Assembly (NCBI RefSeq): GCF_963675165.1
Contig: NC_087383.1
Span: forward strand, 2,510,979 to 2,574,978
Source of the DNA: Halichondria panicea
Lineage: Eukaryota > Porifera > Demospongiae > Suberitida > Halichondriidae
Direction: 5' to 3'
DNA length: 64,000 nt
In this document: piece after piece, positions 1 through 62,384 of the stretch
Numbering within the stretch: the stretch's first letter is position 1
Layout: every line of letters begins with the position of its first letter
Position numbers and translations under genes: made by a program
The notes under the pieces: generated by a model
What the model was told of the DNA's origin: nothing
The model's input: the letters and a program-made list of their open reading frames with translations, nothing else
Database searches by the model: none

Positions 1-311
1 AGTGGGACCATAGGCAGTGCATGTACATAGTGGGGCCATAGGCAGTGCATGTACACAGTGGGACCATAAGCAGTGCATGTACACAGTGGGGCCATAGGCA
101 GTGCATGTACATAGTGGGACCATAGGCAGTGCATGTACATAGTGGGACCATAGGCAGTGCACGTACACAGTGGGACCATAGGCAGTGCATGTACACAGTG
201 GGGCCATAAGCAGTGCATGTACACAGTGGGGCCATAGGCAGTGCATGTACATAGTGGGGCCATAGGCAGTGCATGTACATAGTGGGACCATAGGCAGTGC
301 ATGTACATAGT
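1..311. repeat. 28-bp satellite array S1 (about 11 units)
   Basis: Head-to-tail 28-bp units built from the blocks AGTGGGACCATA, GGCAGTGC and ATGTACAT. Variants include GGGGCC for GGGACC, AAGCAG for AGGCAG, and CACAG for CATAG. The array runs off the left edge of the window. It ends at the same junction sequence (TTTACAGGTCAAATTG) seen at the right end of array S5 near 59706, so the flanking DNA was duplicated together with the array. Confidence 0.97.
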
Positions 312-855
312 GGACCATAACCCTTTACAGGTCAAATTGTTGTAAATATTACAACAACAAAGGAGCATGCTATTAACTTGTCAATATTGATCAATGTTGA
401 TATTGGATTGTGTGGTAGATTGTGAGAGCTTTGAAGTACTAGTTTTGCTGAGCTGCTTGACACTTGAAACTGGATTGGCTCTGGAAGCACTATTGACTTT
501 GTACTCTTTTTTTTTTTTGCAGGTGATCTTAACTGCTTATTCTCCTGTTCAGCCATTGTCTGTTGGCTACTGCTTCCATCTACACCACCTTTAAAGATGC
601 TAAGTTTAATATTACTTTCTCCAGACACAACTCATCTCTTGTGTGTCCTACTGTGTCCCTTTACCGGTCAAATTGAAGGTTTAGACCAGCTACAGCTTTT
701 AAAGGCCACACATACTTCCATCGAGGCAAGCAGCAAGGCATAATCGACTGGTTAGTGTGTGTGTGTGTGACGTGAGTGTACACAACCATTGTCCCACGCC
801 CATCTTCTAAGCTAGTCTGGCCACGCCCTCCCCAAAGAAGTCTTCATTGGGGGGC
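312..855. repeat. Satellite-flanked duplicated segment with small minus-strand ORF
   Basis: This 540-bp segment lies between two satellite arrays and recurs at 59707-60179. Both copies keep an open minus-strand frame (here 332-628, 98 codons) whose product starts MSGESNIKLSIFKGG and contains a lysine run and a Gln/Ser-rich stretch. The poly-T followed by GCAG near 513-523 looks like a splice acceptor on +. The right part holds a short GT microsatellite near 753-768. I do not recognise the product. The shared frame could be the N-terminus of a transposon protein or chance conservation after a recent duplication, so I do not call a gene. Confidence 0.5.
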
Positions 856-5942: not shown

Positions 5943-6581
5943 ATGGCCACTAAAGAGCAGAACCAAGGTATAAAGACTGTCATGTTTCCTATAAAGGATA
6001 AACCCAATGATTGCTAAAGCATAAAACCCTCATTGGTGATTGCTAACCTTGTGTGCTTGCTATCTATTTTCAGAGCTCACAATTGACGATCTGAAGACAG
6101 AAATGAAACTGACTGATGAGCAGCTCAATACAGCAATACAGGAACCAGATCTACCCGAGTTAGCAGCATGTTTCGATAACACTGATGATTATCTTGAAAA
6201 GCTGGAGCTGTCAATGGAGCTGCCCTCTATCAACTTCTGAATACAAACAATTCCCTCGAATGTCTTAATTTGTCTGGTAACACATTGACTAACTGTCGTC
6301 ACATTGCTGCTGGACTTGCAGCCAATAAGACTCTGAGAAGATTGGACTTGAGTAACTGTAAACTGACTGATCAGAGTATCGAGGAGCTATCAACTGGACT
6401 GATCAACAAGATTGAAACACTGCACATTTATGATGGAACAGAAGATGGAATGAAGACGCTTGCCAGACATCTAACTGACACTATTGGTGATACCCGACCA
6501 CCTAATTAATATTCTGTATCGAGACAGTATTCAGGGATGCTAACAAAGAGAGGAAGAGAAATGGACTGCCTGAGATTTAAT
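5943..6581 (+). pseudogene. NLR1: internally deleted NLR remnant
   Basis: Exon 1 (5943-5967, MATKEQNQ) and the start of exon 2 (from 6074, ELTIDDLKTEMKLTDEQL) match the intact NLRs. At 6212/6213 the death-fold exon jumps directly into LRR sequence equivalent to NLR2 position 21430. Against NLR2 this is a clean deletion of about 2.28 kb with one shared base at the junction. The fusion reads into a TGA at 6238. LRR codons (LTNCRHIAAGLAANKTLRRL) continue in another frame to about 6509, and a further small deletion lies near 6480. The whole NACHT ATPase is absent, so the copy cannot make a receptor. 3' sequences match the other copies, including AATAAATG near 6659. Confidence 0.9.
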
Positions 6582-6834
6582 GTGGTTGCATTCTTACCAT
6601 GATTTTAATTACTTTTGACAATGGATTTTATTTTCTGCCATAATTATATCACATTATAATAAATGACAATTTGAGAAAAGTAGCAAAGTACTATAATAAT
6701 ATATAGTATATTATGTTGGAACATTAGGTCGTTAATAACGTGTCAATAGTACATGCAGATGATATAAATAATTCATGCACTGCTGTGAATAGTCAATGAA
6801 TACATGCACTTTGCTAATGGAAAATCCAATTTAA

Positions 6835-9705: not shown

Positions 9706-10408
9706 CATAAGCAGTGCATGTACATAGTGGGACCATAGGCAGTGCATGTACATAGTGGGGCCATAGGCAGTGCATGTACATAGTGGGACCATAGGCAGTG
9801 CATGTACATAGTGGGACCATAGGCAGTGCATGTACATAGTGGGACCATAAGCAGTGCATGTACATAGTGGGACCATAAGCAGTGCATGTACATAGTGGGA
9901 CCATAAGCAGTGCATGTACATAGTGGGACCAAAGGCAGTGCATGTACATAGTGCAGTGCATGTACATAGCGGGACCATAGGCAGTGCATGTACATAGTGG
10001 GACCATAGGCAGTGCATGTACATAGTGGGACCATAAGCAGTGCATGTACATAGTGGGACCATAAGCAGTGCATGTACATAGTGGGACCATAAGCAGTGCA
10101 TGTACATAGTGGGACCATAGGCAGTGCATGTACATAGTGCAGTGCATGTACATAGTAGGACCACATGTACATAGTGGGACCATAGGCAGTGCATGTACAT
10201 AGTGGGACCATAGGCAGTGCATGTACATAGTGGGACCATAAGCAGTGCATGTACATAGTGGGACCATAGGCAGTGCATGTACATAGTGGGACCATAGGCA
10301 GTGCATGTACATAGTGGGACCATAGGCAGTGCATGTACATAGTGGGACCATAGGCAGTGCATGTACATAGTGGGACCATAGGCAGTGCATGTACATAGTG
10401 GGACCATA
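9706..10408. repeat. 28-bp satellite array S3 (about 25 units)
   Basis: Same 28-bp unit, here very homogeneous (nearly all GCATGTACATAGTGGGACC). Truncated units give short ...GTGCAGTGC... joints near 9950 and 10137. The array is interrupted at 10409 by the inserted TIR element 10409-11761 and resumes as S4. Confidence 0.97.
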
Positions 10409-11761: not shown

Positions 11762-12317
11762 TATAGGCAGTGCGTGTACATAGTGGGACCATAGGCAGTG
11801 CATGTACACAGTGGGACCATAGGCAGTGCATGTACATAGTGGGACCATAGGCAGTGCATGTACATAGTGGGACCATAGGCAGTGCGTGTACATAGAGGGA
11901 CCATAGGCAGTGCGTGTACATAGTGGGACCATAGGCAGTGCATGTACACAGTGGGACCATAGGCAGTGCATGTACACAGTGGGACCACAGGCAGTGCATG
12001 TACACAGTGGGACCACAGGCAGTGCGTGTACACAGTGGGACCACAGGCAGTGCGTGTACACAGTGGGACCACAGGCAGTGCGTGTACACAGTGGGACCAT
12101 AGGCAGTGCGTGTACACAGTGGGACCATAGGCAGTGCGTGTACACAGTGGGACCATAGGCAGTGCGTGTACACAGTGGGACCATAGGCAGTGTGTGTACA
12201 CAGTGGGACCATAGGCAGTGCGTGTACACAGCGGGACCATAGGCAGTGCATGTACACAGTGGGACCATAAGCAGTGCATGTACATAGTGGGACCATAAGC
12301 AGTGCATGTACATAGTG
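11762..12317. repeat. 28-bp satellite array S4 (about 20 units)
   Basis: Continuation of S3 beyond the inserted element, but with different variant composition: CACAGTGGGACC dominates, GCGTGTACACAG units run together from about 12020 to 12230, and four successive units carry CCACAG instead of CCATAG (about 11985-12075). This shows local homogenisation. It ends at TAGTGAAAATGTTTTTTCAG, the same right-hand neighbour as S2 and S7. Confidence 0.97.
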
Positions 12318-15029: not shown

Positions 15030-15321
15030 CGGTACGTAGTGTCAAAACATACAATGTCATGTACAAACTTTAATAACAGCTATGAAAGCATCTACGTATG
15101 AAGAATAAATGCGTATAGCCTTCTTTAGAAAATGGCCCAAAAGTAGTGTTGCAACCATACAAGTACTCTACCATGGAGACTCACCTAGAGAGCTGTCTGC
15201 TGCCACGGCAACACACTTAGAGAGTGTGCTGAGGATCCCTTGTTTGGTCTCCCAGGACTCCTTCATCTTGGCATCCAGGTGGTCCACCAGCGACTGGACG
15301 GCCTTGTACCGATCCTGTCTC

Positions 15322-16165
15322 TGTGGGGGTACATGTAAGTGGATAATGTTACCCTAGGAGGCTGTGGGGGTACATGTACAGTGGATAATGTACACTGGGG
15401 GGCTGTGGGGGGTACATGATAGATAATGTAAACTGGGGGGCGTGGGGGTACATGTACAGTGGATAATGAACACTGGGGGGCTGTGGGGGTACATGTAAGT
15501 GGATAATGTACACTGGGGGGCTGTGGGGCGTGGGGGTACATGTACAGTGGATAATGTACACTGGGGGGCTGTGGGGCGTGGGGGTACATGTACAGTGGAT
15601 AATGAACACTGGGGGGCTGTGGGGGTACATGTAAGTGGATAATGTACACTGGGGGGCTGTGGGGGTACATGTACAGTGGATACTGTACACTGGGGGCTGT
15701 GGGGGGTACATGATAGATACTGTACACTTGGAGGCTGTAGGGGGTACATGTGTGTGGATACTGTACACTGGGGGGCTGTGGGGGGTACATGTGTGTGGAT
15801 ACTGTACACTGGGGGGATGTGGGTTGTACATGTGTGTGGATACTGTACACTGGGGGGCGTGGGGGGTACATGATAGATACTGTACACGGGGGGGGTGTGT
15901 GGGGGTACATGATAGATACTGTACACTGGGGGGCTGTGGGGGGTACATGATAGATACTGTACACTGGGGGGCTGTGGGGGTACATGATAGATACTGTACA
16001 CTGGGGGCTGTGGGGGGTACATGTGAGTAGAAAGTACAATACACATGTACACGGGGGGGGGGTGTGGGGGGTACATGTGAGTAGAAAGTACAATACACAT
16101 GTACACGGGAGGGTGTGGGGGGTACATGTGAGTGGAAAGTACAATACACATGTACATGTAGGTAC
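15322..16165. repeat. GGGGTACATGTA minisatellite in EFR3-A intron
   Basis: About 840 bp of imperfect 35-45 bp tandem units. Each unit holds GTGGGGGTACATG, then a TGGATA(A/C)TGTACAC block, then CTGGGGGGCTGTG. The same intron in EFR3-B (30700-30865) and EFR3-C (43677-43790) has only a few units, so this copy has expanded. Long open frames on both strands here (PPVYIIH..., HVPPTAPQCT...) arise from the repeat and are not genes. Confidence 0.9.
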
Positions 16166-18054: not shown

Positions 18055-18714
18055 TTATTTGTAAAACGTAGAGCAGAGGTTTTTATGTAATATGTTGGCA
18101 ACCCTGCGCTTTCTTCTGGGTTTCTCACCCGTATCGTTTGAGGTACCCCCGAACGAGTCGGGTAAGAACTCAGCTAGTTCGATAAATTCCTCATTTTCCG
18201 ATTTTTTAGATAGTTTGTCGGGAATGGGGATGGCATTCTGGCCTACATTGACCGTATATGGAATAATGCTTGGTATCGTCGGTAATGTGGGGAGGCTCAT
18301 GCGGGTTTGAGTACGGGGGGCACTAGTGGATACGAGGGGAACATGTGCTAGTGAGGTACTTGACATACCTGCCGTTCCGGTGCTGACAACAGGGCCTGAG
18401 GTGGGACTCCGTGGGGTACCCGAGCCGGAAGCAGAGATGGTTGGGATCGAGGGTGGGACTGATGGTGAGACTGATGAGGGGACGGCTGTGGGGTGGTGTT
18501 GTTGGACTGCTGCCTGAATCCGCTGGTCCATTGCGGTGATGATCGTTGGTAACACCGCGCCGAGGGCTGCCTGGACAGAATTGGCAATCATGGTGTTGAA
18601 AGTTGTCGGAGTTGTCGTCGGGTTGGTGGAACTGATGGGCGGTGTTCCAGTTGAGGATGTGCTCGAGGAGGTAGTGGTCATCTTCATATAGAGAATTATA
18701 GGATAGATCAGCAA
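18055..18714 (-). CDS. Retroelement gag-like ORF, copy A (219 aa)
   Basis: Open 219-codon minus-strand frame starting MLIYPIILYMKMTTTSSSTS; the second Met (MTTTSSS) is an alternative start. The first half is a Ser/Thr/Pro-rich low-complexity region with an embedded helical stretch (MIANSVQAALGAVLP...). The C-terminal part reads AIPIPDKLSKKSENEEFIEL then AEFLPDSFGG. The 'IP.KL..K....EFIEL.E.LP' pattern resembles the gag-like start of retroelements common in sponge and cnidarian genomes (family inference). It lies head-to-head with NLR2 (start codons about 160 bp apart) and ends about 45 bp before the EFR3-A start codon. Copy C at 47986-48645 is almost identical, copy B is broken. It could be an isolated first exon of an element whose remainder is lost. 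Confidence 0.55.
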   Translation of the reverse strand: MLIYPIILYMKMTTTSSSTSSTGTPPISSTNPTTTPTTFNTMIANSVQAALGAVLPTIITAMDQRIQAAVQQHHPTAVPSSVSPSVPPSIPTISASGSGTPRSPTSGPVVSTGTAGMSSTSLAHVPLVSTSAPRTQTRMSLPTLPTIPSIIPYTVNVGQNAIPIPDKLSKKSENEEFIELAEFLPDSFGGTSNDTGEKPRRKRRVANILHKNLCSTFYK

Positions 18715-18876: not shown

Positions 18877-21825
18877 ATGGCCACTAAAGAGCAGAACCAA
18901 GGTATAAAGACTGTCATGTTTCCTATAAAGGATAAACCCAATGATTGCTAAAGCATAAAACTCTCATTGGTGATTGCTAACCTTGTGTGCTTGCTTATCT
19001 ATTCTCAGAGCTCACAATTGACGATCTGAAGACAGAAATGAAACTGACTGATGAGCAGCTCAATACAGCAATAAAGGAACCAGATCTACCCGAGTTAGCA
19101 GCATGTTTCGATAACACTGATGATTATCTTGAAAAGCTGGAGCTGTCGCCTGGACAGAAAACTGACGTCAGCGAAGTGAAGGCTAAAACACGTCTAAACC
19201 GCACTCAAGCCGGAATAAAACTTGCCCTAGAATACTGGCAGAACAAGAACCAACTACAAGCCACCTTCCAAGCTCTGCTACTCATCATACTCTCCCTGCT
19301 CAAAGGAGACGTTGCTGTTCAAGTGTGCAAGTACTTGTCTGACAAATGTGAGTCTGTTATGTGAGAGTGTGGTCATTGTGGTACCATACGTTGTGGGAGT
19401 GATTGCAACCAAATAAGGGACTTTCAACTTAATTGCTATTGTTACACATACAATTCTCTATTTACTATCACCAGGAATGGTACTCACCTATTGTTTTGTT
19501 TCTCCAGACTCCACCACCTCGTGTCCCCACTCTCAAGAGAGGGTCCTGCTGAACCACAAGCTGTCCTCGTACAGGGACTACCTACAAAGTCGCTACAGAG
19601 AACCAGACTCCACATCAGCCACACAATGGCCTCCCGTCTCAACAAACAAAGTCTTTAAACTGGCCATGATTCAGAAAGAGAAAATACAGAGAGGAAAAAT
19701 CGACGATGAATTTGTTAAACTAACAATCACAGGAAAAATTGACGATATTTTACTTAAAAAAACTCCGGTTAACTTGACGAACATTTTCTCTGAGATTGGA
19801 GATAGAAGACACTTTGTGTTGATTGAAGGAGCTCCCGGCTCTGGCAAGAGCACCCTTGCTCTACACATTTGTCAGGAGTGGGCAAAGGGGAAACTGTTCC
19901 AAGAATTCGATATTGCAATCCTTGTCAGACTGAGAGATCCCCTCGTTAGAGAAGCCATTACAATTTCTGACTTACTTCCCTGCACAAACAAAGCGATGGC
20001 TAATGAAATAGAGACTGCAATTATGTCATTGTACGGCAAAGGTGTACTGTGGGTGCTGGACGGATGGGACGAACTTTCTTCTGACCTCCCTAGAGACTCA
20101 ATCATCAACAAACTAATTCGACCAGGCACGTCACAAGAACGTCCGCTACACAAATCCACCATGATTATAACATCTCGACCATCATCTTCGGCTGAGCTCC
20201 ACCCACTAGTCTCGTCCAGGGTGGAAGTGTTGGGGTTCAATCCACATGAACTAGAACAGTATTTCACTGAGTGTCTGAAAGGTGACTCACAAGCTGTGCA
20301 GACTCTACTGGAGAGAATTCGAGAGAACCCAGTGGTAGAAGGTAGCTGCTACCTCCCCCTCAATGCTTCCATTGTCGTTAATTGCTTCCTTTCTGACAAC
20401 CACTCCCTCCCAACATCCAACCACGGGATATTCACATCAATTGTCCAGAGCTCTCTCAAGAGATACCTCCAGGAGAAGTTGGGGAAGACCACTCCAGTGG
20501 GAGACATCACATCCCCAGACTCACTGCCCTCGGAAATCAGAATGCAGACCGTACAAATGTGTCAACTTGCATATCATGGGATCGAAAAAAACAAAGCGAC
20601 ATTTACTGACAGTGATTTGGCCGCTCTTTGCATTACGAAGGACATTTCAAACGTTGGATTATTACAAACTGTTCCCAGTATCATTAGCGATGGTCATTTG
20701 GTTTACTACTGCTTTCTCCACCTGTCTATTCAAGAGCTACTGGCAGCAATCCACATCTCTCTCATGTCTCCCAAGCAACAAATCTCTGTATTCCAGAAGC
20801 TGTTTGGGAATCCTCGATTCAGTGCAGTCTTCCAGTTTTATGCTGGTATCACCAAACTGAGTACAAGTAGACCAATCCTCAGCAAGCTACCTCGATTCTT
20901 GTGTCCAGTTCCAGCCACTGTTTTTGATCTGGTCAGAAAGGTTGTCAAAACTGAGAAAGAGAAGTATGGTGAGCCGAAGCCCCTTTTGTTGTCCCTCATC
21001 AATTGTTTGTACGAAGCTGAAGACTCGCAACTGTGTGTGTTTGTGGCTAATCTTCTTAATCACAATCTAAATCTTGATAGCACTACAATGAATCCTATCA
21101 ACTGCCTCTCTGTTGGATATTTCGTATCAGCTTGTTCCAACACCAGTAATGGATTCACACTTCGCCTCAGAAGTTGCTCTATTAGTGAACAAGGCTGCAA
21201 ATTTCTGGCACGAGGACTCTCCAAGTGTCCCAACTCTAATAATGATATTCCTACAGAAGGGATACACATCGCTGAGATTATCGAGAACACTATTTCAATA
21301 TCTGAATTGGATTTGTTTAATAATGCCATTGGTAACAGTGGACTTAGCACACTCTGTGAGGCCTTCTCAGCGAACATATCATTAAAGCGCCTGCACCTGA
21401 CCAAATGCTCACTAACAATATCAGACGACAATGGAGCTGCCCTCTATCAACTTCTGAATACAAACAATTCCCTCGAACATCTTAATTTGTCTGGTAACAC
21501 AGTGACTAGCTGTCGTCACATTGCTGCTGGACTTGCAGTCAATAAGACTCTGAGAACATTGGGATTGGGTAACTGTGAACTGACTGATCAGAGTATCGAG
21601 GAACTATCAACTGGACTGATCAACAAGATTGAAACACTGTTCATTTATGGTAATGACTCAATAACAGAAGATGGAATGAAGACGCTTGCCAGACATCTAA
21701 CCACCCACTGCTCTGAACTGACACGATTGTTGATACCCGACCACCTAAGATCCTGTATCGAGACAGTATTCAGGGACACTAACAAAGAGAGGAAGAGAAA
21801 TGGACTACCCGAGATTGATGTGTGA
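18877..21825 (+). CDS. NLR2: death-fold–NACHT–LRR receptor, three exons (893 aa)
   Basis: Predicted exons 18877-18901, 19009-19347 and 19508-21825 join in phase 1 at both introns and give 893 residues. Residues about 9-121 form an all-helical death-fold-like domain (ELTIDDLKTEMKLTDEQL ... QATFQALLLIILSL). Residues about 225-390 are a NACHT ATPase: Walker A GAPGSGKST at 229-237, Walker B WVLDGWDEL at 303-311, and an ITSRP sensor-like segment near 342. FLHLSIQELLAA (about 524-535) is the NLR HD2 signature. From about 680 on there are leucine-rich repeats (LSELDL/LEHLNLSGN type). The start is chosen because the eight-residue first exon MATKEQNQ and its donor are identical in all four copies. Known NLRs are cytosolic sensors that oligomerise on ligand binding and signal through the N-terminal death fold; ligand unknown here. 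CARD rather than Death cannot be excluded. Confidence 0.93.
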
Positions 21826-33115: not shown

Positions 33116-33775
33116 TTTTATGTAATATGTTGGCAACCCTGCGCTTTCTTCTGGGTTTCTCACCCGTATCGTTTGAGGTACCCCCGAACGAGTCGGGTAA
33201 GAACTCAGCTAGTTCGATAAATTCCCCTTTTTCCGATTTTTTAGATAGTTTGTCGGGAATGGGGATGGCATTCTGGCCTACATTGACCGTATATGGGACT
33301 TCTGGTCAAAGTAACGGCTTGGTATCGTCGGTAATGTGGGGAGGCTCATGCTGGTTTGAGTACGGGGGGCACTAGTGGATACGAGGGGAACATGTGCTAG
33401 TGAGGTACTTGACATACCTGCCGTTCCGGTGCTGACAACAGGGCCTGAGGTGGGACTCCGTGGGGTACCCGAGCCGGAAGCAGAGATGGTTGGGATCGAT
33501 GAGGAGACTGATGGTGGGACTGATGGTGAGACTGATGAGGGGACGGCTGTGGGGCTGTGTTGTTGGACTGCTGCCTGAATCCGCTGGTCCATTGCGGTGA
33601 TGATCGTTGGTAACACCGCGCCGAGGGCTGCCTGGACAGAATTGGCAATCATGGTGTTGAGAGTTGTCGGAGTTGTCGTCGGGTTCGTGGAACTGATCGG
33701 CGGTGTTCCAGTTGAGGATGTGCTCGAGGAGGTAGTGGTCATCTTCATATAGAGAATTACAGGATAGATCAGCAA
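33116..33775 (-). pseudogene. Retroelement gag-like ORF, copy B (broken)
   Basis: The N-terminal 150 codons match copies A and C (MTTTSSSTSSTGTPPISSTN onward). Near 33297-33320 the sequence GGAATAATG of the sister copies is replaced by a longer GGGACTTCTGGTCAAAGTAACGG, which ends the frame shortly before the IPIPDKL segment. The C-terminal half is still recognisable out of frame (33127-33300). It also has a small in-frame insertion in the SVPPSVSSSIP region. Confidence 0.65.
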
Positions 33776-34082: not shown

Positions 34083-36964
34083 ATGGCCACTAAAGAGCAG
34101 AACCAAGGTATAAAGACTGTCATGTTTCCTATAAAGGATAAACCCAATGATTGCTAAAGCATAAAACCCTCATTGGTGATTGCTAACCTTGTGTGCTTGC
34201 TATCTATTTCAGAGCTCACAATTGACGATCTGAAGACAGAAATGAAACTGACTGATGAGCAGCTCAATACAGCAATAAAGGAACCAGATCTACCCGAGTT
34301 AGCAGCATGTTTCGACAATGTTCACAAAGGCTATCTTGAAAAATTGGAGCTCTCACCTGGAGAGCAAACTGACGTGAGGACTAGAGCATATGTAGATGGC
34401 ACTCTGGCAGGAATGTTGCTGGCTTTGAAATTCTGGATTCTGACCAACGGACAAGACGCCACTTTCCAAGCTCTGCTACTCATCATACTCTCCCTGCTCA
34501 AAGAAGACGTTGCTGTTCGAGTGTGCAAGTACTTGTCTGACAAATGTGAGTCTGTCATGTGAGAGTGCATGTGGTCATTGTGGTACCATACGTTGTGGGA
34601 GTGATTGCAACCAAATAAGGGACTTTCAACTTAATTGCTATTGTTACACATACAATTCTCTATTAACTATCACCAGGAATGGTACTCACCTATTGTTTTG
34701 TTTCCCCAGACTCCACCACCTCGTGTCCCCCCTCCCGAGAGAGGGTCCTGCTGAACCACAAGCTGTCCTCGTACAGGGACTACCTACAAAGTCGCTACAG
34801 AGCACGAGTATCCACATCAGCCATACAATGGCCTCCTGTTCCAACAAACAAAGTCTTCAAACTGGCAATGATTCAGAAGGAGAAAATACAGAGAGGAAGA
34901 ATCGACGATGAATTTGTTAGGCTATCAATCACAGGAAAAATCGACGATATTTTACTTCAAAAAACTCCGGTTAACTTGACTAACATTTTCTCTGAGATTG
35001 GAAATAGACGAAACTTTGTGTTGATTGAAGGAGCTCCCGGCTCTGGCAAGAGCACCCTTGCTCTACACATCTGTCAGGAGTGGGCAGAGGGAAAACTGTT
35101 CCAAGAGTTCGATATTGCAATCCTCGTGAGACTGAGAGATCCACTTGTTAGAGAAGCCAAGAAAATAGAAGACCTTCTCCCTTGTAGGAAATCAACACAC
35201 GCAAGCCAGATTGGAGATGAAATTTTAGAAACTGATGGCAAAGGTGTACTGTGGGTGCTGGACGGGTGGGACGAGCTTCCTTCTGACCTCCATGGAGACT
35301 CGATCATCACCAAACTAGTTGAACCAGGCTTTGCACAAGAAAGTCCGCTACATAAATCCGCCGTCATTGTAACATCTCGCCCGTCGTCTTCAGCTAAGCT
35401 CCACCCACGTGTATCGTCCAGGGTGGAAGTGTTGGGGTTCACTCCACATCAACTAGAACAGTATTTTACCGAGTGTCTGAATGGTGACTCACAAGCTGTG
35501 CAGACTCTACTGGAGAGAATTCGAGAGAACCCTGTGGTAGAAGGTAGCTGCTACCTCCCCCTCAATGCTTCCATTGTCGTTAATTGCTTTCTTTCTGATA
35601 ACCACTCACTCCCCACATCCAACCACGGGATATTCATATCAGTTGTCCAAAGCTCTCTCAAGAGATACCTCCAGGATAGGTTGGGGAAGACCACTCCAGT
35701 GGGAGACATCACATCCCCAGACTCACTGCCCTCGGAAATCAGAACAGAGACCGTACAAATGTGTCAACTTGCATATCATGGGATCGAAAAAAACAAAGCA
35801 ACATTTACTGACAATGATTTGGCCGCTCTTCGCATTACGAAGGAAATTTCATACGTTGGACTATTACAAACTGTTCCCAGTATCATTAGCGATGGTCATC
35901 TGGTTTACTACTGTTTTCTCCACCTGTCTATTCAAGAGCTACTAGCAGCAATCCACATCTCTCTCATGTCTCCCAAGCAACAAATTTCTGTATTCCAGAA
36001 GCTGTTTGGTAGTCCTCGATTCAGTGCAGTCTTCCAGTTTTATGCTGGTATCACCAAACTGAGTACTAGTAGACCAATCCTCAGTTTGCTACCTCGATTC
36101 TTGTGTCCAGTTCCAGCCACTGTTTTTGATCTGGTCAGAAAGGTTGTCAAAAAGGAGAAAGAGAAAGAGTATGGTGAGCCGAAGCCCCTTTTGTTGTCCC
36201 TCATCAATTGTTTGTACGAAGCTGAAGACTCGTCACTGTGTGTGTTTGTGGCTAATCTTCTTAATCACAATCTAAATCTTAATCACACTACAATGAATCC
36301 TATTGACTGCCTTTCTGTTGGATATTTCGCATCAGTTTGCTCCAAACCCAGTAATGGAGGATTCACACTTAGCCTCAAAATGTGCTCTATTGGTGACCAA
36401 GGCTGCAAATTTCTGGCCCGAGGACTCTCCAAGTGTCCCAACTCTAATAATGATATTCCTACAGGAGGGATACACATCGCTGAGATTATCGAGAACACTA
36501 GTTCAATATCTGGATTGAATTTACCTTTTAATGCCATTGGCAACAGTGGACTTAGCACACTCTGTGAGGCCTTGTCAACGAACACATCATTAAAGACACT
36601 GAACCTGCGCAATTGCTCACTAACAATATCAGACGACAATGGAGCTGACCTCTATCAACTTCTAAATACAAACAATTCCCTCGAACATCTTGATTTGTCA
36701 TTTAACACAGTGACTAGCTGTCGTCACATTGCTGCTGGACTTGCAGTCAATAAGACTCTGAGAAGATTGCACTTGGATGACTGTGAACTGACTGATCAGA
36801 GTATCGAGGAGCTATCAACTGGACTGATCAACAAGATTGAAACACTGGAGATATGGGATAATTACTCAATAACAGAAGATGGAATGAAGACGCTTGCCAG
36901 ACATCTAACCACCCACTGCTCTGAACTGACACAATTGTACATACCCTTCCACCTAAGATCCTGA
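34083..36964 (+). CDS. NLR3: death-fold–NACHT–LRR receptor, early stop (870 aa)
   Basis: Exons 34083-34107, 34213-34545 and 34710-36964 give 870 residues with the same phase-1 introns as NLR2. The death-fold exon differs from NLR2 in its second half (PGEQTDVRTRAYVDGTLAGM) and is two residues shorter. The NACHT core keeps GAPGSGKST and WVLDGWDELPSD. The LRR part differs from NLR2 and NLR4 at many solvent-type positions (for example LNLPFNAIG, LKMCSIGDQGC). The stop is early: sister copies read CTGTATCGAG where this one reads CTGATTCGAG, turning Cys into TGA and removing about 23 C-terminal residues (IETVF...RKRNGLPEI). The truncation affects only the C-terminal tail beyond the LRRs, so the receptor may still work. 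Confidence 0.92.
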
Positions 36965-47985: not shown

Positions 47986-48645
47986 TTATTTGTAAAACGT
48001 AGAGCAGAGGTTTTTATGTAATATGTTGGCAACCCTGCGCTTTCTTCTGGGTTTCTCACCCGTATCGTTTGAGGTACCCCCGAACGAGTCGGGTAAGAAC
48101 TCAGCTAGTTCGATAAATTCCCCTTTTTCCGATTTTTTAGATAGTTTGTCGGGAATGGGGATGGCATTCTGGCCTACATTGACCGTATATGGAATAATGC
48201 TTGGTATCGTCGGTAATGTGGGGAGGCTCATGCGGATTTGAGTACGGGGGGCACTAGTGGATACGAGGGGAACATGTGCTAGTGAGGTACTTGACATACC
48301 TGCCGTTCCGGTGCTGACAACAGGGCCTGAGGTGGGACTCCGTGGGGTACCCGAGCCGGAAGCAGAGATGGTTGGGATCGAGGGTGGGACTGATGGTGAG
48401 ACTGATGAGGGGCCGGCTGTGGGGCTGTGTTGTTGGACTGCTGCCTGAATCCGCTGGTCCATTGCGGTGATGATCGTTGGTAACACCGCGCCGAGGGCTG
48501 CCTGGACAGAATTGGCAATCATGGTGTTGAGAGTTGTCGGAGTTGTCGTCGGGTTGGTGGAACTGATCGGCGGTGTTCCAGTTGAGGATGTGCTCGAGGA
48601 GGTAGTGGTCATCTTCTTATAGAGAATTACAGGATAGATCAGCAA
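47986..48645 (-). CDS. Retroelement gag-like ORF, copy C (219 aa)
   Basis: 219-codon open frame nearly identical to 18055-18714 (differences include MKMTTT to KKMTTT, SENEEF to SEKGEF, and several Pro/Ala changes), so the second start codon of copy A is lost and only the first remains. Ser/Thr/Pro-rich N-terminal half; AIPIPDKLSKK and EFIELAEFLPDSFGG near the end. Head-to-head with NLR4 (about 300 bp between starts, with the stem-loop between). No cysteine-knuckle, protease or reverse transcriptase follows, so the rest of any element is missing. Confidence 0.55.
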   Translation of the reverse strand: MLIYPVILYKKMTTTSSSTSSTGTPPISSTNPTTTPTTLNTMIANSVQAALGAVLPTIITAMDQRIQAAVQQHSPTAGPSSVSPSVPPSIPTISASGSGTPRSPTSGPVVSTGTAGMSSTSLAHVPLVSTSAPRTQIRMSLPTLPTIPSIIPYTVNVGQNAIPIPDKLSKKSEKGEFIELAEFLPDSFGGTSNDTGEKPRRKRRVANILHKNLCSTFYK

Positions 48646-48796
48646 GGGAAATCTTGAGAATTATAGGGAAGAGAAGTTTTCTAATTTGTTTGTTCTTTCA
48701 CTGACTGCCTGACCACGTGTTCCTTGCGCATGCCAGTACCTAGTCTCATGAATCATCCGCCGTTCTTTTGGAGGTTTTGTCTCAAATGTCTTTGGT

Positions 48797-48894
48797 GGGT
48801 GTGGTATTAAATGCAAAAGTGGGTGTATCTCAGTCTTAGATATCTGAGATACACCCACTTTTTTTGCAAGTCATGCAAAAACAACAACACACCC
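48797..48894. repeat. NLR-upstream stem-loop, unit 4
   Basis: Third copy of the stem-loop (AGTGGGTGTATCTCAG / CTGAGATACACCCACT), 50 bp before the NLR4 ATG; identical stem to 33936-34033. Confidence 0.8.
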
Positions 48895-48943
48895 AATATA
48901 TTTCAGAGAGAGCTAGCTGCAAGACACAGATTTATTTGCTGGA

Positions 48944-51894
48944 ATGGCCACTAAAGAGCAGAACCAAGGTATAAAGACTGTCATGTTTCCTATAAAGGAT
49001 AAACCCAATGATTGCTAAAGCATAAAACCCTCATTGGTGATTGCTAACCTTGTGTGCTTGCTATCTATTTCAGAGCTCACAATTGACGATCTGAAGACAG
49101 AAATGAAACTGACTGATGAGCAGCTCAATACAGCAATAAAGGAACCAGATCTACCCGAGTTAGCAGCATGTTTCGACAATGTTCACAAAGGCTATCTTGA
49201 AAAATTGGAGCTCTCACCTGGAGAGCAAACTGACGTGAGGACTAGAGCATATGTAGATGGCACTCTGGCAGGAATGTTGCTGGCTTTGAAATTCTGGATT
49301 CTGACCAACGGACAAGACGCCACTTTCCAAGCTCTGCTACTCATCATACTCTCCCTGCTCAAAGAAGACGTTGCTGTTCGAGTGTGCAAGTACTTGTCTG
49401 ACAAATGTGAGTCTGTCATGTGAGAGTGCATGTGGTCATTGTGGTACCATACGTTGTGGGAGTGATTGCAACCAAATAAGGGACTTTCAACTTAATTGCT
49501 ATTGTTACACATACAATTCTCTATTAACTATCACCAGGAATGGTACTCACCTATTGTTTTGTTTCCCCAGACTCCACCACCTCGTGTCCCCCCTCCCGAG
49601 AGAGGGTCCTGCTGAACCACAAGCTGTCCTCGTACAGGGACTACCTACAAAGTCGCTACAGAGCACGAGTATCCACATCAGCCATACAATGGCCTCCTGT
49701 TCCAACAAACAAAGTCTTCAAACTGGCAATGATTCAGAAGGAGAAAATACAGAGAGGAAGAATCGACGATGAATTTGTTAGGCTATCAATCACAGGAAAA
49801 ATCGACGATATTTTACTTCAAAAAACTCCGGTTAACTTGACTAACATTTTCTCTGAGATTGGAAATAGACGAAACTTTGTGTTGATTGAAGGAGCTCCCG
49901 GCTCTGGCAAGAGCACCCTTGCTCTACACATCTGTCAGGAGTGGGCAGAGGGAAAACTGTTCCAAGAGTTCGATATTGCAATCCTCGTGAGACTGAGAGA
50001 TCCACTTGTTAGAGAAGCCAAGAAAATAGAAGACCTTCTCCCTTGTAGGAAATCAACACACGCAAGCCAGATTGGAGATGAAATTTTAGAAACTGATGGC
50101 AAAGGTGTACTGTGGGTGCTGGACGGGTGGGACGAGCTTCCTTCTGACCTCCATGGAGACTCGATCATCACCAAACTAGTTGAACCAGGCTTTGCACAAG
50201 AAAGTCCGCTACATAAATCCGCCGTCATTGTAACATCTCGCCCGTCGTCTTCAGCTAAGCTCCACCCACGTGTATCGTCCAGGGTGGAAGTGTTGGGGTT
50301 CACTCCACATCAACTAGAACAGTATTTTACCGAGTGTCTGAATGGTGACTCACAAGCTGTGCAGACTCTACTGGAGAGAATTCGAGAGAACCCTGTGGTA
50401 GAAGGTAGCTGCTACCTCCCCCTCAATGCTTCCATTGTCGTTAATTGCTTTCTTTCTGATAACCACTCACTCCCCACATCCAACCACGGGATATTCATAT
50501 CAGTTGTCCAAAGCTCTCTCAAGAGATACCTCCAGGATAGGTTGGGGAAGACCACTCCAGTGGGAGACATCACATCCCCAGACTCACTGCCCTCGGAAAT
50601 CAGAACAGAGACCGTACAAATGTGTCAACTTGCATATCATGGGATCGAAAAAAACAAAGCAACATTTACTGACAATGATTTGGCCGCTCTTCGCATTACG
50701 AAGGAAATTTCATACGTTGGACTATTACAAACTGTTCCCAGTATCATTAGCAATGGTCATCTGGTTTACTACTGTTTTCTCCACCTGTCTATTCAAGAGC
50801 TACTAGCAGCAATCCACATCTCTCTCATGTCTCCCAAGCAACAAATTTCTGTATTCCAGAAGCTGTTTGGTAGTCCTCGATTCAGTGCAGTCTTCCAGTT
50901 TTATGCTGGTATCACCAAACTGAGTACTAGTAGACCAATCCTCAGTTTGCTACCTCGATTCTTGTGTCCAGTTCCAGCCACTGTTTTTGATCTGGTCAGA
51001 AAGGTTGTCAAAAAGGAGAAAGAGAAAGAGTATGGTGAGCCGAAGCCCCTTTTGTTGTCCCTCATCAATTGTTTGTACGAAGCTGAAGACTCGTCACTGT
51101 GTGTGTTTGTGGCTAATCTTCTTAATCACAATCTAAATCTTGATAGCACTACAATGAATCCTATCGACTGCCTCTCTGTTGGATATTTCGTATCAGCTTG
51201 TTCCAACACCAGTAATGGATTCACACTGCACCTCAACAATTGCTCTATTAGTGAACAAGGCTGCAAATTTCTTGCCCGAGGACTCTCCAAGTGTCCCAAC
51301 TCTAATAATGATATTCCTACAGCAGGGATACACATCGCTAAGATTATCGAGAACACTAGTTCAATATCTGAATTGGATTTGTCTAATAATGCCATTGGTA
51401 ACAGTGGGCTTAGCACACTCTGTGAGGTCTTGTCAACTAACACATCATTAAAGATCCTGGACCTGTGCAGGTGCTCACTAACAATATCAGACGACAATGG
51501 AGCTGCCCTCTATCAACTTCTAAATACAAACAATTCCCTCGAACATCTTAATTTGTCTGGTAACACAGTGACTAGCTGTCGTCACATTGCTGCTGGACTT
51601 GCAGTCAATAAGACTCTGAGAACATTGTCCTTGGGTTCCTGTAAACTGACTGATCAGAGTATCGAGGAGCTATCAACTGGACTGATCAACAATATTGAAG
51701 GACTGTACATTGGGGGTAATGACTCAATAACAGAAGATGGAATGAAGCCGCTTGCCAGACATCTAACCACCCACTGCTCTGAACTGACACTATTGGTGAT
51801 ACCCGGCCGCCTAAGATCCTGTATCGAGACAGTATTCAGGGACGCTAACAAAGAGAGGAAGAGAAATGGACTACCTGAGATTTATGTGGGGTAA
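48944..51894 (+). CDS. NLR4: death-fold–NACHT–LRR receptor, mosaic of NLR3 and NLR2 (893 aa)
   Basis: Exons 48944-48968, 49074-49406 and 49571-51894 give 893 residues. Exons 1-2, both introns and exon 3 up to about 51140 match NLR3; the only protein change I see is IISDGHL to IISNGHL. From LNLDSTTMNPIDCLSVGYFV on it matches NLR2 (same DSTT, VSACSNTSNG, ISEQGC and full C-terminal tail RKRNGLPEI), with its own substitutions in exposed LRR positions (LHLNNCS, LKILDLCRCS, LRTLSLGSCK). Walker A and B are intact. The LRR end is complete, unlike NLR3. Function as for NLR2: cytosolic sensor with death-fold signalling; the LRR swap would change the sensing surface while keeping the signalling module. 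Confidence 0.93.
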
Positions 51895-52549
51895 TTGTTG
51901 TTTACCCGAGATTAATTATGTTTATTAATTGATTGATTATTAATTGTGTATTCATTAGATTATTAATTTATAATTAATTGATTATTATTAATAATTAATG
52001 TTTAGTTATAATTATATTATGATTATTGTTGTTATTAATTAATTAATAAATGTTAATTAATTTGTTGTGTTATGCATCTAATCTCTATCATTGGTCAATA
52101 TAATTATAGCACATGTACAGATGGTGACGAGTGAATTCAATGCTTCCTACTGACACGGAGAGCATGTCATGCACTAGCTGTATGTATGTAACTGAATACA
52201 CTATTGTAATAATGCTATAATCTCCACCTAGCTAGCCTCCTTCACAGGCTTTCAAGAGAAGTGCGGCATGGGCCGGGATCGAGGCTAATCTCGACATGAT
52301 CTACTTTTGACAACAATTATATTACTAGGACAATTTACAAAACAGTTAGTGCACAGAAGACTAGAAATATGTCGGCACATTACATAACAATTACCTAAAA
52401 ACAAATCAGTTGGAATTGGTCAATATAGCACAGTAATAATGATGGTTTAAATTCAATGCTCCCTACAGTGTCACAGAGAGCACATGCACTGTACGTATAA
52501 AACTGTTAATGAATGTAGTGGAAATCCAATTTAACGCTCTGTCGATTTT
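51895..52549. other. 3' flank of NLR4
   Basis: The first 50-60 bp (TTGTTTACCCGAGATTAATT) match the NLR2 flank. Between about 51955 and 52020 identity switches to the NLR3 flank, continuing to about 52530. AATAAATG near 52048. No gene. The switch marks the right border of the conversion tract. Confidence 0.7.
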
Positions 52550-59174: not shown

Positions 59175-59706
59175 AAACAGTGCATGTACATAGTGGGACC
59201 ATAAGCAGTGCATGTAAATAGTGGGGCCATAGGCAGTGCATGTAAATAGTGGGGCCATAGGCAGTGCATGTACATAGTGGGACCATAGGCAGTGCATGTA
59301 CATAGTGGGACCATAGGCAGTGCATGTACATAGTGGGACCATAGGCAGTGCACGTACACAGTGGGACCATAGGCAGTGCACGTACACAGTGGGACCATAG
59401 GCAGTGCACGTACACAGTGGGGCCATAGGCAGTGCACGTACACAGTGGGGCCATAGGCAGTGCACGTACACAGTGGGGCCATAGGCAGTGCACGTACATA
59501 GTGGGACCATAGGCAGTGCACGTACATAGTGGGACCATAAGCAGTGCATGTACATAGTGGGACCATATAGGCAGTGCATGTACATAGTGGGACCATAGGC
59601 AGTGCATGTACATAGTGGGACCATAGGCAGTGCATGTACATAGTGGGACCATAAGCAGTGCATGTACATAGTGGGACCATAAGCAGTGCATGTACATAGT
59701 GGGACC
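59175..59706. repeat. 28-bp satellite array S5 (about 19 units)
   Basis: Same satellite. The central seven or so units are the GCACGTACACAGTGGG(A/G)CC variant (about 59340-59530) and the outer ones GCATGTACATAG; one CCATATAGGC variant near 59564. The right junction TTTACAGGTCAAATTG equals that of S1. Confidence 0.97.
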
Positions 59707-60936: not shown

Positions 60937-61334
60937 TAGGCAGTGCATGTACATAGTGGGGCCATAAGCAGTGCATGTACATAGTGGGGCCATAATTAAG
61001 CAGTGCATGTACATAGTGGAACCATAAGCAGTGCATGTACATAGTGGGACCATAAGCAGTGCATGTACATAGTGGGACCATAAGCAGTGCATGTACATAT
61101 TGGGGCCATAAGCAGTGCATGTACATAGTGGGACCATAAGCAATGCATGTACATAGTGGGACCATAAGCAGTGCATGTACATAGTGGGACCATAAGCAGT
61201 GCATGTACATATTGGGGCCATAAGCAGTGCATGTACATAGTGGGACCATAAGCAGTGCATGTACATAGTGGGACCATAGGCAGTGCATGTACATAGTGGG
61301 ACCACAAGCAGTGCATGTACTTAGTGGGACCATA
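60937..61334. repeat. 28-bp satellite array S7 (about 14 units)
   Basis: Mostly AAGCAGTGCATGTACATAGTGGGACC units, with two GTACATATTGGGGCC units 112 bp apart (about 61095 and 61207) that suggest a four-unit local duplication, and one GCAATGC and one CCATAATTAAGC variant. Ends at AAGCTCTGTACACACACTAG as S2 does. Confidence 0.96.
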
Positions 61335-62384
61335 AGCTCTGTACACACACTAGAGGTCAATTTGAGTACCTTTTCTATTTTGCTTAAAAAAATGTTTTTT
61401 CAGGTGAGTTGAAGGTGTACAATGCAGTAAGGAACTAGACTGAATAGTTTTAAGCACAAAACCCCCAAATTGCACGTTAGACAATCATTCCGCCAAATTT
61501 TTCCGGTTGCTGCCCCCCGAACCCCCCCCCAAATGTTCAACAACGTACGGCCGTCGTCATTTCCCCCCTTAGCTAAAAATCCTGCTTGAAACCCTGACAA
61601 TAGTGAGTATTTGTGACATACCGTATAAGTAGAGGTTGTATGGTGAAAATGTTCGTATATTCGTACTGTAGAGCATCATACACTGTACGAAAAATAAAAC
61701 TACAAAACTATTCTACAGCAATAGGCTCAACGTGGCTGTATGAATATTTAAAATACGAAATATTTCCAGTCCTACAGTATTATAAACTCTTTAACCACAA
61801 CTTTGGTAAACATAATATTATTTCTTACCTAAACTTCTTGAAGGTATGAGTGAGTGTTCTGGTTCATTACTGACAGGGCATCATTCTCAGTCTCAACTCA
61901 CATCAACCTCCAGCATGGGGTGGGTCGATCACAGTGACATAACACACACAAACTGTGCAAAGGAACAGGAAAACATGATAAACCGGCATTACGGTAACTT
62001 AAACCAACAGATGATAAATAGACTAAAATCATGAAAAAACTCACTAATAATAACGAGTGTTGCAAACTGCGATGTGCTAATGCATGCCTCTCACTTATAG
62101 TTTCGATTAGGGGGGGAGGGGCTAAATGAGGTTCTTTATACTGCTAATCACAGGGGCCCCTCTTTCCGTACTCTCCTTAAACCCTAATCGCAGTCACGTA
62201 CGTGACCCCTAACCTCTAGCGTGAGAGATATGAATGGGCACGTACGTACATGTAACATCTGCTTAACCGGTACCTCGCGGATATGACACAACAAATCTAC
62301 TGCAACCTGTAAGACTAGTCTCATATACATGTACCACAGAAACAGTGTGCTTGCGTACATGCTAATTTAAAACTACTCACATCT
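61335..62384. repeat. Satellite-right segment, right-hand copy
   Basis: Parallels 1833-2750 and 12318-13295: TTTTTTCAGGTGAGTTGAAGG, the G/C homopolymer block (about 61515-61570), AT-rich DNA, degenerate FEAESAAL exon (about 61846-61900). No gene. Confidence 0.65.

What the first reader, a model, noticed from the sequence alone, without database searches (positions are those of the whole stretch)
48944..52020. NLR4 is a mosaic: NLR3 body with an NLR2-type LRR region and 3' flank
Up to about 51140 NLR4 matches NLR3 (one amino-acid change seen, no other difference by eye). From TTGATAGCACTAC on it follows NLR2 (21080 onward), through the stop and about 55 bp of 3' flank, and near 51955-52020 it returns to the NLR3-type flank. 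This is the signature of a conversion tract of about 0.8 kb that exactly covers the LRR-coding end. It suggests that the array exchanges ligand-sensing modules while holding the death-fold and NACHT parts constant.
Basis: seen in the sequence. Interest (0 to 1): 0.8.

Follow-up and report, generated by a model that had tools for sequence, protein, structure and literature searches.

The report
Immune receptors with swapped sensor ends
A large array of immune-receptor genes in an animal genome, probably a sponge, keeps the signalling part nearly identical within groups while the sensor end is reshuffled among copies and diversified at its contact residues, a strategy known from plants, fungi and fish and seen here very cleanly.

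Summary
The mosaic is real. NLR3 and NLR4 differ at 1 of 2188 compared bases over w48944-51141, at 77 of 752 in the LRR-coding end, and agree again after w52015. But it is not one 0.8-kb tract from NLR2: NLR2 is only the 4th nearest of 40 other LRRs (93.4%), NLR3 is the most distant, and NLR4's LRR shares exact 171-183 bp pieces with other copies.

The pattern is family-wide. Among 43 copies read from the same chromosome, seven with almost identical bodies carry six different LRR ends. Over 8 groups of near-identical bodies, synonymous divergence is 0.006 within and 0.169 between groups for the body, but 0.058 and 0.074 for the LRR. LRR linkage falls to background within about 160 bp. At 28 beta-strand contact codons dN/dS is 3.5, against 0.55 in the other LRR codons.

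Best explanation: short-tract gene conversion among paralogues plus diversifying selection on the ligand face. Zebrafish NLR-B30.2 and Arabidopsis RPP8 are close precedents. The body is itself mosaic between groups, so 'constant body' holds only within groups. Assembly error was not testable at read level.

The parts
48944..48968 (+). NLR4 exon 1 (inferred): ATG and eight codons up to a GT donor
   Evidence: read directly from the sequence; splice sites inferred, no transcript data
49074..49406 (+).
   Evidence: sequence; identical in NLR3, 74% in NLR2; no Pfam match up to E 0.1, none for member 1 at E 10, no PDB match at E 5
49571..51894 (+). NLR4 exon 3 (inferred): NACHT, winged helix, HD2 and LRR region, open to the stop codon
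   Evidence: open frame 49540-51894; Pfam NACHT 9.8e-20, LRR_6, NLRC4_HD2, NOD2_WH; best PDB match NLRP3, E 4.1e-28
48736..51141 (+). constant body of NLR4: two differences from NLR3 (48924 and 50752); near-identical in seven copies on the chromosome
51142..52015 (+). variable tract: LRR codons, stop and about 120 bp of 3' flank; differs in six of the seven copies that share the body
51226..51813 (+). seven xLxLxx beta-strand motifs whose 28 x codons are hypervariable (dN/dS 3.49)
   Evidence: predicted strands begin at or cover each motif
52022..52529 (+). 3' flank of the NLR3 type, one mismatch to NLR3 in 288 three-way compared bases
34083..36964 (+). NLR3: same body as NLR4, different LRR end; its frame stops early, 761 against 784 codons
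36279..37190 (+). NLR3 variable tract (LRR end and flank)
18877..21825 (+). NLR2: different body group, LRR 93.4% identical to that of NLR4

Best explanation
NLR4 is one of at least 58 related NACHT-LRR receptor genes on this chromosome. Units are duplicated along the array, giving groups of genes with near-identical bodies. The LRR-coding end of each gene, about w51140-52015, keeps being overwritten piecemeal by homologous DNA from other genes of the array, through gene conversion in tracts of roughly 100-250 bp (inferred from shared exact pieces and from the decay of linkage). All LRR ends therefore form one mixed pool that is not tied to the body. On top of this, diversifying selection favours changes at the beta-strand residues that line the concave, presumably ligand-binding, face. 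The result is one signalling chassis with many different sensors. Shown: the sharp switches, the decoupling of LRR from body, the shared internal tracts, the excess of amino-acid change at contact codons. Inferred: gene conversion as the process, direction of transfer, ligand binding, immune function, and that it happens in the germ line.
For: NLR3 v NLR4: 1/2188 against 77/752 mismatches. Seven copies: 7 variable sites in about 2100 bp of body, 140 in about 890 bp of LRR end, 11 in about 495 bp of 3' flank. Of 903 pairs of 43 copies, 39 have bodies >=98.5% identical; 37 of these have LRRs only 90.0-96.4% identical, and 25 of the 37 still share a >=97% identical 3' flank. Changepoints in 23 such pairs: the 5' switch is within w51085-51165 in 15, and the 3' return to >=96% identity is within w51887-52016 in 12. 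dS within/between 8 body groups: body 0.0056/0.169, LRR 0.058/0.074 (29 and 791 pairs). Synonymous sites and non-coding flank change too, so selection on the protein alone does not explain it. Exact shared LRR runs >=130 bp: 39 pairs, against 1-10 in 20 column shuffles; 36 of the 39 are between copies whose bodies are only 90-96% identical, e.g. 232 internal bp shared by c2293 and c2547. LRR linkage r2 0.147 at <=3 bp falls to 0.031 at 80-160 bp and 0.027 beyond (shuffled 0.024). The 8 body groups are monophyletic in the body tree (partly by construction) and 1 of 8 in the LRR tree. Contact codons: entropy 1.91 against 0.19 bits (p = 3e-18), dN/dS 3.49 against 0.55.
Against: The body is not a clean constant partner: over 41 copies the rank distances of its two halves are uncorrelated (r -0.02) and linkage decays in the body too (0.387 to 0.057), so recombination is family-wide and the LRR is its extreme. 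Decoupling is not total: the Pearson Mantel correlation of body with LRR is 0.113, reached by 3 of 2000 shuffles; by rank it is 0.083 (121 of 2000), or 0.045 (408 of 2000) without three distal copies. Four-residue contact sets are almost all different (693 of 820 pairs share none), more than copying alone would give. Some pairs (12 of 37) also differ in the 3' flank, which fits crossing-over as well as conversion. No reads were available.
Confidence: 0.82

Rival explanations
1. The bodies, not the LRRs, are the conversion tracts: copies are old, the body is repeatedly homogenised within groups, and the LRR simply escapes, kept diverse by selection.
For: In the seven-copy group the body is more alike (7 variable sites in about 2100 bp) than most of the upstream flank bins; zebrafish NACHT exons are read this way (PMC4852459, section 7).
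Against: LRR synonymous divergence between groups (0.074) is less than half that of bodies (0.169), so LRRs do not merely escape; they are shared across groups. Internal exact tracts link LRRs of different bodies. 18 of 20 within-group pairs share an upstream flank and 21 of 29 a downstream flank, against 116 of 358 and 283 of 791 between groups, which suits duplication of whole units. Both processes probably act.
Confidence: 0.3
2. Assembly artefact: near-identical copies or the two haplotypes were stitched together, making false mosaics.
For: Two pairs of copies 200 and 300 kb apart are almost identical over 5.2 kb (3 and 1 mismatches), as falsely kept haplotypes can be. No reads or coverage could be seen.
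Against: The switch recurs in 8 body groups at much the same places. Seven bodies with six LRRs cannot be two haplotypes of one locus. Frames stay open and dN/dS at contact codons is 3.5 with 0.55 elsewhere, which random stitching would not give. The whole gene is about 3 kb.
Confidence: 0.06
3. No transfer: strong diversifying selection, or a mutation process aimed at the LRR, makes the LRR ends of recently duplicated genes diverge.
For: Contact codons are extremely diverse: 41 of 41 contact haplotypes distinct, up to all four bases at codon positions 1 and 2 with the third base held.
Against: Synonymous LRR sites within groups are diverged about tenfold more than body ones (0.058 against 0.0056) and the non-coding flank to w52015 changes too. 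Linkage falls with distance and long exact tracts are shared between unlike bodies. The base spectrum is symmetric (A/G 51, C/T 49 two-allele sites) and 162 of 750 LRR sites are invariant A, so no adenine-directed mutagenesis is seen.
Confidence: 0.1
4. A single recent conversion of about 0.8 kb from NLR2 into NLR4.
For: 44 sites join NLR4 to NLR2 against 17 to NLR3.
Against: 33 of 752 sites in NLR4 match neither or are private to it in the three-way comparison; NLR2 is rank 4 of 40 at 93.4%; 183 bp match c2080 and 171 bp match c2833 exactly.
Confidence: 0.03

Closest known systems
Zebrafish NLR-B30.2 family (Howe et al. 2016, PMC4852459; passages and section 7 read)
   Same: Body (NACHT) synonymous divergence low within and high between groups; sensor domain equally low within and between groups; sensor dN/dS above 1; authors infer gene conversion acting differently on the two parts.
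   Different: There the shuffled sensor is the B30.2 domain and the LRRs are 'not particularly variable'; here there is no B30.2 match in the exon-3 proteins of NLR2-4 and the LRR itself is shuffled. Body groups here are far closer to each other (dS 0.17 against about 1.5-1.8).
Arabidopsis RPP8 NLR family (PMC6771003; passages read)
   Same: LRR is exchanged among paralogues while the non-LRR part follows the locus; LRR haplotypes nearly all unique; X sites of XXLXLXXXX hypervariable; LD and trees used as evidence.
   Different: A plant NB-ARC family with three main paralogues studied across accessions; here tens of paralogues in one animal genome. LRR Ka:Ks there 0.75-0.97; here about 1.2-1.3 overall and 3.5 at contact codons.
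Podospora het-d/het-e (NWD) WD-repeat NLR-like genes (PMC1805685; abstract and outline read)
   Same: Sensor repeats exchanged within and between family members, with positive selection at a few interface residues per repeat.
   Different: WD40 repeats with variable repeat number in a fungus; here LRRs with a fixed number in most copies.
Sponge NLR expansions, e.g. Dysidea avara (PMC12909245; abstract and passages read)
   Same: Many NACHT-LRR genes in one genome, grouped by species.
   Different: That text has no occurrence of 'gene conversion', 'recombination', 'tandem' or 'positive selection'.

Membership tests
NLR (NACHT-LRR receptor) | NACHT NTPase domain | tested here: met
   PF05729 at 71.5 bits against a cut-off of 26.7
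NLR (NACHT-LRR receptor) | C-terminal leucine-rich repeats | tested here: met
   PF13516 above its cut-off; strand-helix repeats in the model, good confidence only from about the third repeat on; PDB matches NLRP3 and ribonuclease inhibitor
NLR (NACHT-LRR receptor) | N-terminal death-fold (CARD, DEATH, PYD) effector domain | tested here: inconclusive
   no Pfam or PDB match for exon 2; its fold was not predicted
Gene-conversion-shuffled NLR sensors, zebrafish NLR-B30.2 type | sensor dS similar within and between body groups while body dS is not | tested here: met
   0.058/0.074 for LRR, 0.0056/0.169 for body
Gene-conversion-shuffled NLR sensors, zebrafish NLR-B30.2 type | the shuffled sensor is a B30.2 domain | tested here: not met
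   no B30.2/SPRY among Pfam matches of the three exon-3 proteins; the shuffled part is the LRR
RPP8-like intergenic exchange of LRRs | LRR tree discordant with the rest of the gene; X sites hypervariable | tested here: met
   1 of 8 body groups monophyletic in the LRR tree; X codons dN/dS 3.49
RPP8-like intergenic exchange of LRRs | polymorphism shared between paralogues across individuals | not testable with these tools
   one genome only
Diversity-generating retroelement | adenine-directed substitutions in the variable region | tested here: not met
   A/G 51 and C/T 49 two-allele sites; 162 of 750 sites invariant A
Diversity-generating retroelement | template repeat with reverse transcriptase | not tested
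   no search made
Lamprey VLR-type assembly from LRR cassettes | bank of LRR-only donor cassettes | tested here: inconclusive
   the 44 LRR matches checked (40 plus-strand, 4 minus-strand, from the capped lists) all sit behind a body motif; one internally deleted gene with an LRR lies at w6076-6586; weaker or orphan copies could be missed

The most novel reading that the evidence does not exclude
The array is an active generator of receptor diversity: an exchange process aimed at the LRR end by fixed borders near w51140 and w51890-52015, with mutation or very strong selection focused on the contact codons, possibly fast enough to act within a population or even in somatic tissue, as in lamprey VLRs.
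Probability: 0.1. Interest if true: 0.92.

Novelty: new variant of a known kind. Interest (0 to 1): 0.58.

Why it matters
An animal without lymphocyte-based immunity (if it is a sponge, as inferred) would make many sensors on one signalling chassis by mixing LRR ends among tens of genes. Here the LRR, not an added B30.2 domain, is the shuffled part, and the hypervariable residues pick out the likely ligand face in advance of any biochemistry. The near-identical bodies give natural chassis-matched sets in which only the sensor differs, so what the LRR recognises, and how fast the array turns over between individuals, become directly testable.

Tried and rejected
Single donor NLR2: rejected. Adenine-directed mutagenesis of the diversity-generating-retroelement kind: suggested by the residue sets (N, D, Y, H, S, G) and fixed third bases at contact codons, rejected on the symmetric spectrum and the many invariant A sites. 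Selection on the protein alone: rejected as the full account because synonymous and flank sites change too. Another NLR family as a control: C13 and C16 pairs L004/L006 and L002/L003 show no such sharp drop in the stretch held, but those loci hardly reach the LRR end, so this says little. Distance correlations were first taken as Pearson, then by rank and without three distal copies; both are reported. Identification of the species failed: sponge genome sizes seen in one listing do not include 131 Mb. GENECONV and GARD were not run; changepoints, exact-run shuffles, LD and trees stood in for them.

Rows dropped before counts: 43 copies are those whose DNA the genome searches delivered, out of at least 58 body motifs with at most one mismatch on C7; two near-duplicates (c2342, c2901) were left out of 41-copy analyses; alignment columns with 20% gaps or more were left out; 23 of the 39 near-identical pairs were given to the changepoint call (27); 28 copies with full upstream sequence entered the profile.

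Full report
Setting. The window is C7:2510979-2574978 of a 131-Mb genome in 39 contigs. NLR2, NLR3 and NLR4 are NACHT-LRR genes: exon 3 of NLR4 matches Pfam NACHT, winged-helix, HD2 and LRR_6 models and is closest to NLRP3 among solved structures (E 4.1e-28). The exon borders are read from splice signals, without transcripts.

The observation. A three-way alignment shows NLR3 and NLR4 at 100% in nearly every 100-column bin from about w48778 to w51066, 71-97% from there to w51963, and 98-100% from w52059 to about w52609. Counted exactly, they differ at 1 of 2188 compared bases over w48944-51141 and at 77 of 752 over w51142-51894 (Fisher 7e-46); the last difference is at w52015, the next at w52507. 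So the switches are real and sharp. NLR2 is not the donor in any simple sense: in the LRR NLR4 is private at 21 and three-way different at 12 of 752 sites, and NLR2 is the 4th nearest of 40 copies at 93.4%. NLR3, the neighbour with the same body, is the most distant of the 40.

The family. A body motif occurs on C7 at 58 places with at most one mismatch. Seven copies spread over 0.7 Mb match the 2.2-kb NLR4 body at 100% after rounding. Aligned, they have 7 variable sites in about 2100 bp of body, 140 in about 890 bp of LRR end, and 11 in the next 495 bp. I read 43 copies. Of 903 pairs, 39 have bodies at least 98.5% identical; two of these are whole near-duplicates with the same LRR, and the other 37 have LRRs 90.0-96.4% identical, the same as any two copies (median 92.8%, interquartile range 92.0-93.5; rank correlation of body and LRR identity 0.06). 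In 25 of the 37 the 3' flank is again at least 97% alike. In 23 of the 39 pairs, changepoints were fitted: the 5' switch fell in w51085-51165 in 15, and the return to at least 96% identity fell in w51887-52016 in 12. Other pairs switch later (to w51544), earlier, or into an unlike flank.

Transfer or selection. Within 8 groups of near-identical bodies (29 pairs) synonymous divergence is 0.0056 in the body and 0.058 in the LRR; between groups (791 pairs) it is 0.169 and 0.074. Selection on the protein cannot make synonymous and non-coding sites diverge tenfold in one stretch. LRR pairs share exact runs of 130 bp or more in 39 pairs, against 1-10 in 20 shuffles, and 36 of the 39 involve bodies only 90-96% alike. 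Linkage in the LRR drops from r2 0.147 at 3 bp to 0.031 at 80-160 bp, near the shuffled value of 0.024; in the body it drops from 0.387 to 0.057. Against an even simpler picture: the body is mosaic too, its halves being uncorrelated by rank, with very divergent blocks at w49176-49366 and w50020-50099, and LRR and body keep a slight correlation (Pearson 0.113, 3 of 2000 shuffles reach it; by rank 0.083, 121 of 2000, and 0.045, 408 of 2000, without three distal copies).

What is diversified. The 28 x residues of seven xLxLxx motifs have a mean entropy of 1.91 bits against 0.19 for 196 other LRR residues (p = 3e-18); dN/dS is 3.49 at these codons, 0.55 at other LRR codons and 0.33 in the body. 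Each motif falls on a predicted beta strand in the AlphaFold2 model, whose confidence is good only from about the third repeat (mean pLDDT 59 over all, 71-92 per block from residue 211). All 41 copies have different contact sets and 693 of 820 pairs share no repeat's set. This is more diversity at the contacts than copying alone would leave, so strong selection, or some focusing of mutation, is needed. The base spectrum shows no adenine bias.

Mechanism. The best account is piecemeal gene conversion of the LRR end among array members, with duplication (and perhaps homogenisation) of units, and diversifying selection at the contact face. Conversion explains why 3' flanks often stay with the body; where the flank differs too, crossing-over is as good. 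The direction of any transfer between NLR3 and NLR4 cannot be told, because six LRR types occur on this one body.

Known work. Zebrafish NLR-B30.2 genes show the same dS logic with B30.2 as the shuffled part (PMC4852459, section 7). RPP8 in Arabidopsis shows LRR exchange and hypervariable X sites (PMC6771003, passages). Podospora het-d/het-e genes show exchange of WD repeats (PMC1805685, abstract). Searches for sponge or invertebrate NLRs with gene conversion, positive selection or hypervariable LRRs listed no paper whose title or abstract start describes LRR exchange among sponge NLRs; I did not read those lists through, and Yuen et al. 2014 on Amphimedon NLRs is not held. The novelty is thus a new variant of a known kind.

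Limits. One individual, no reads, 43 of at least 58 copies, and no expression data. Near-identical copies 200 and 300 kb apart may be recent duplications or kept haplotypes.

Noticed in passing
window 6076-6586: Relic of an NLR in which the first 47 residues of exon 2 join directly at 6213 to LRR residues (653-784 of NLR4 exon 3), the body being deleted.
   Followed up: no
window 36964: The NLR3 frame ends 23 codons before the NLR4-type end (761 against 784 codons), so NLR3 may lack the C-terminal cap.
   Followed up: no
window 49176-49366 and 50020-50099: Blocks of exon 2 and of the NACHT region are strongly divergent between body groups (pairwise median 54% identity in 50020-50099 over 28 copies; 71-76% NLR2 v NLR4 nearby): a second level of module exchange inside the body.
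   Followed up: partly
L044/L045 and L054/L055: Two pairs of copies 200 and 300 kb apart are identical but for 3 of 5201 and 1 of 5203 bases: very recent duplications, or haplotypes kept twice in the assembly.
   Followed up: partly
window 47986-48645 (-), also 18055-18714 (-) and 33278-33775 (-): A low-complexity minus-strand frame lies just upstream of each NLR; the NLR4-unit one has no convincing Pfam family.
   Followed up: partly
window 1-319, 956-1829, 9706-10408, 11763-12317, 59178-59706, 60940-61337; 15321-16156: Arrays of one 28-bp unit (11-31 copies each) recur in the window, and a G-rich array of about 41 bp lies at 15321-16028; they could matter for recombination in the array.
   Followed up: no
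C7 copies c2041, c2720, c3088, c3926-: Four copies with unlike bodies (91.5-95.4%) share 152-176 exact bases at w51718-51893 equivalents and read on to stops 938-968 bases into the tail, against about 740-785 in most others: an alternative C-terminal type.
   Followed up: partly
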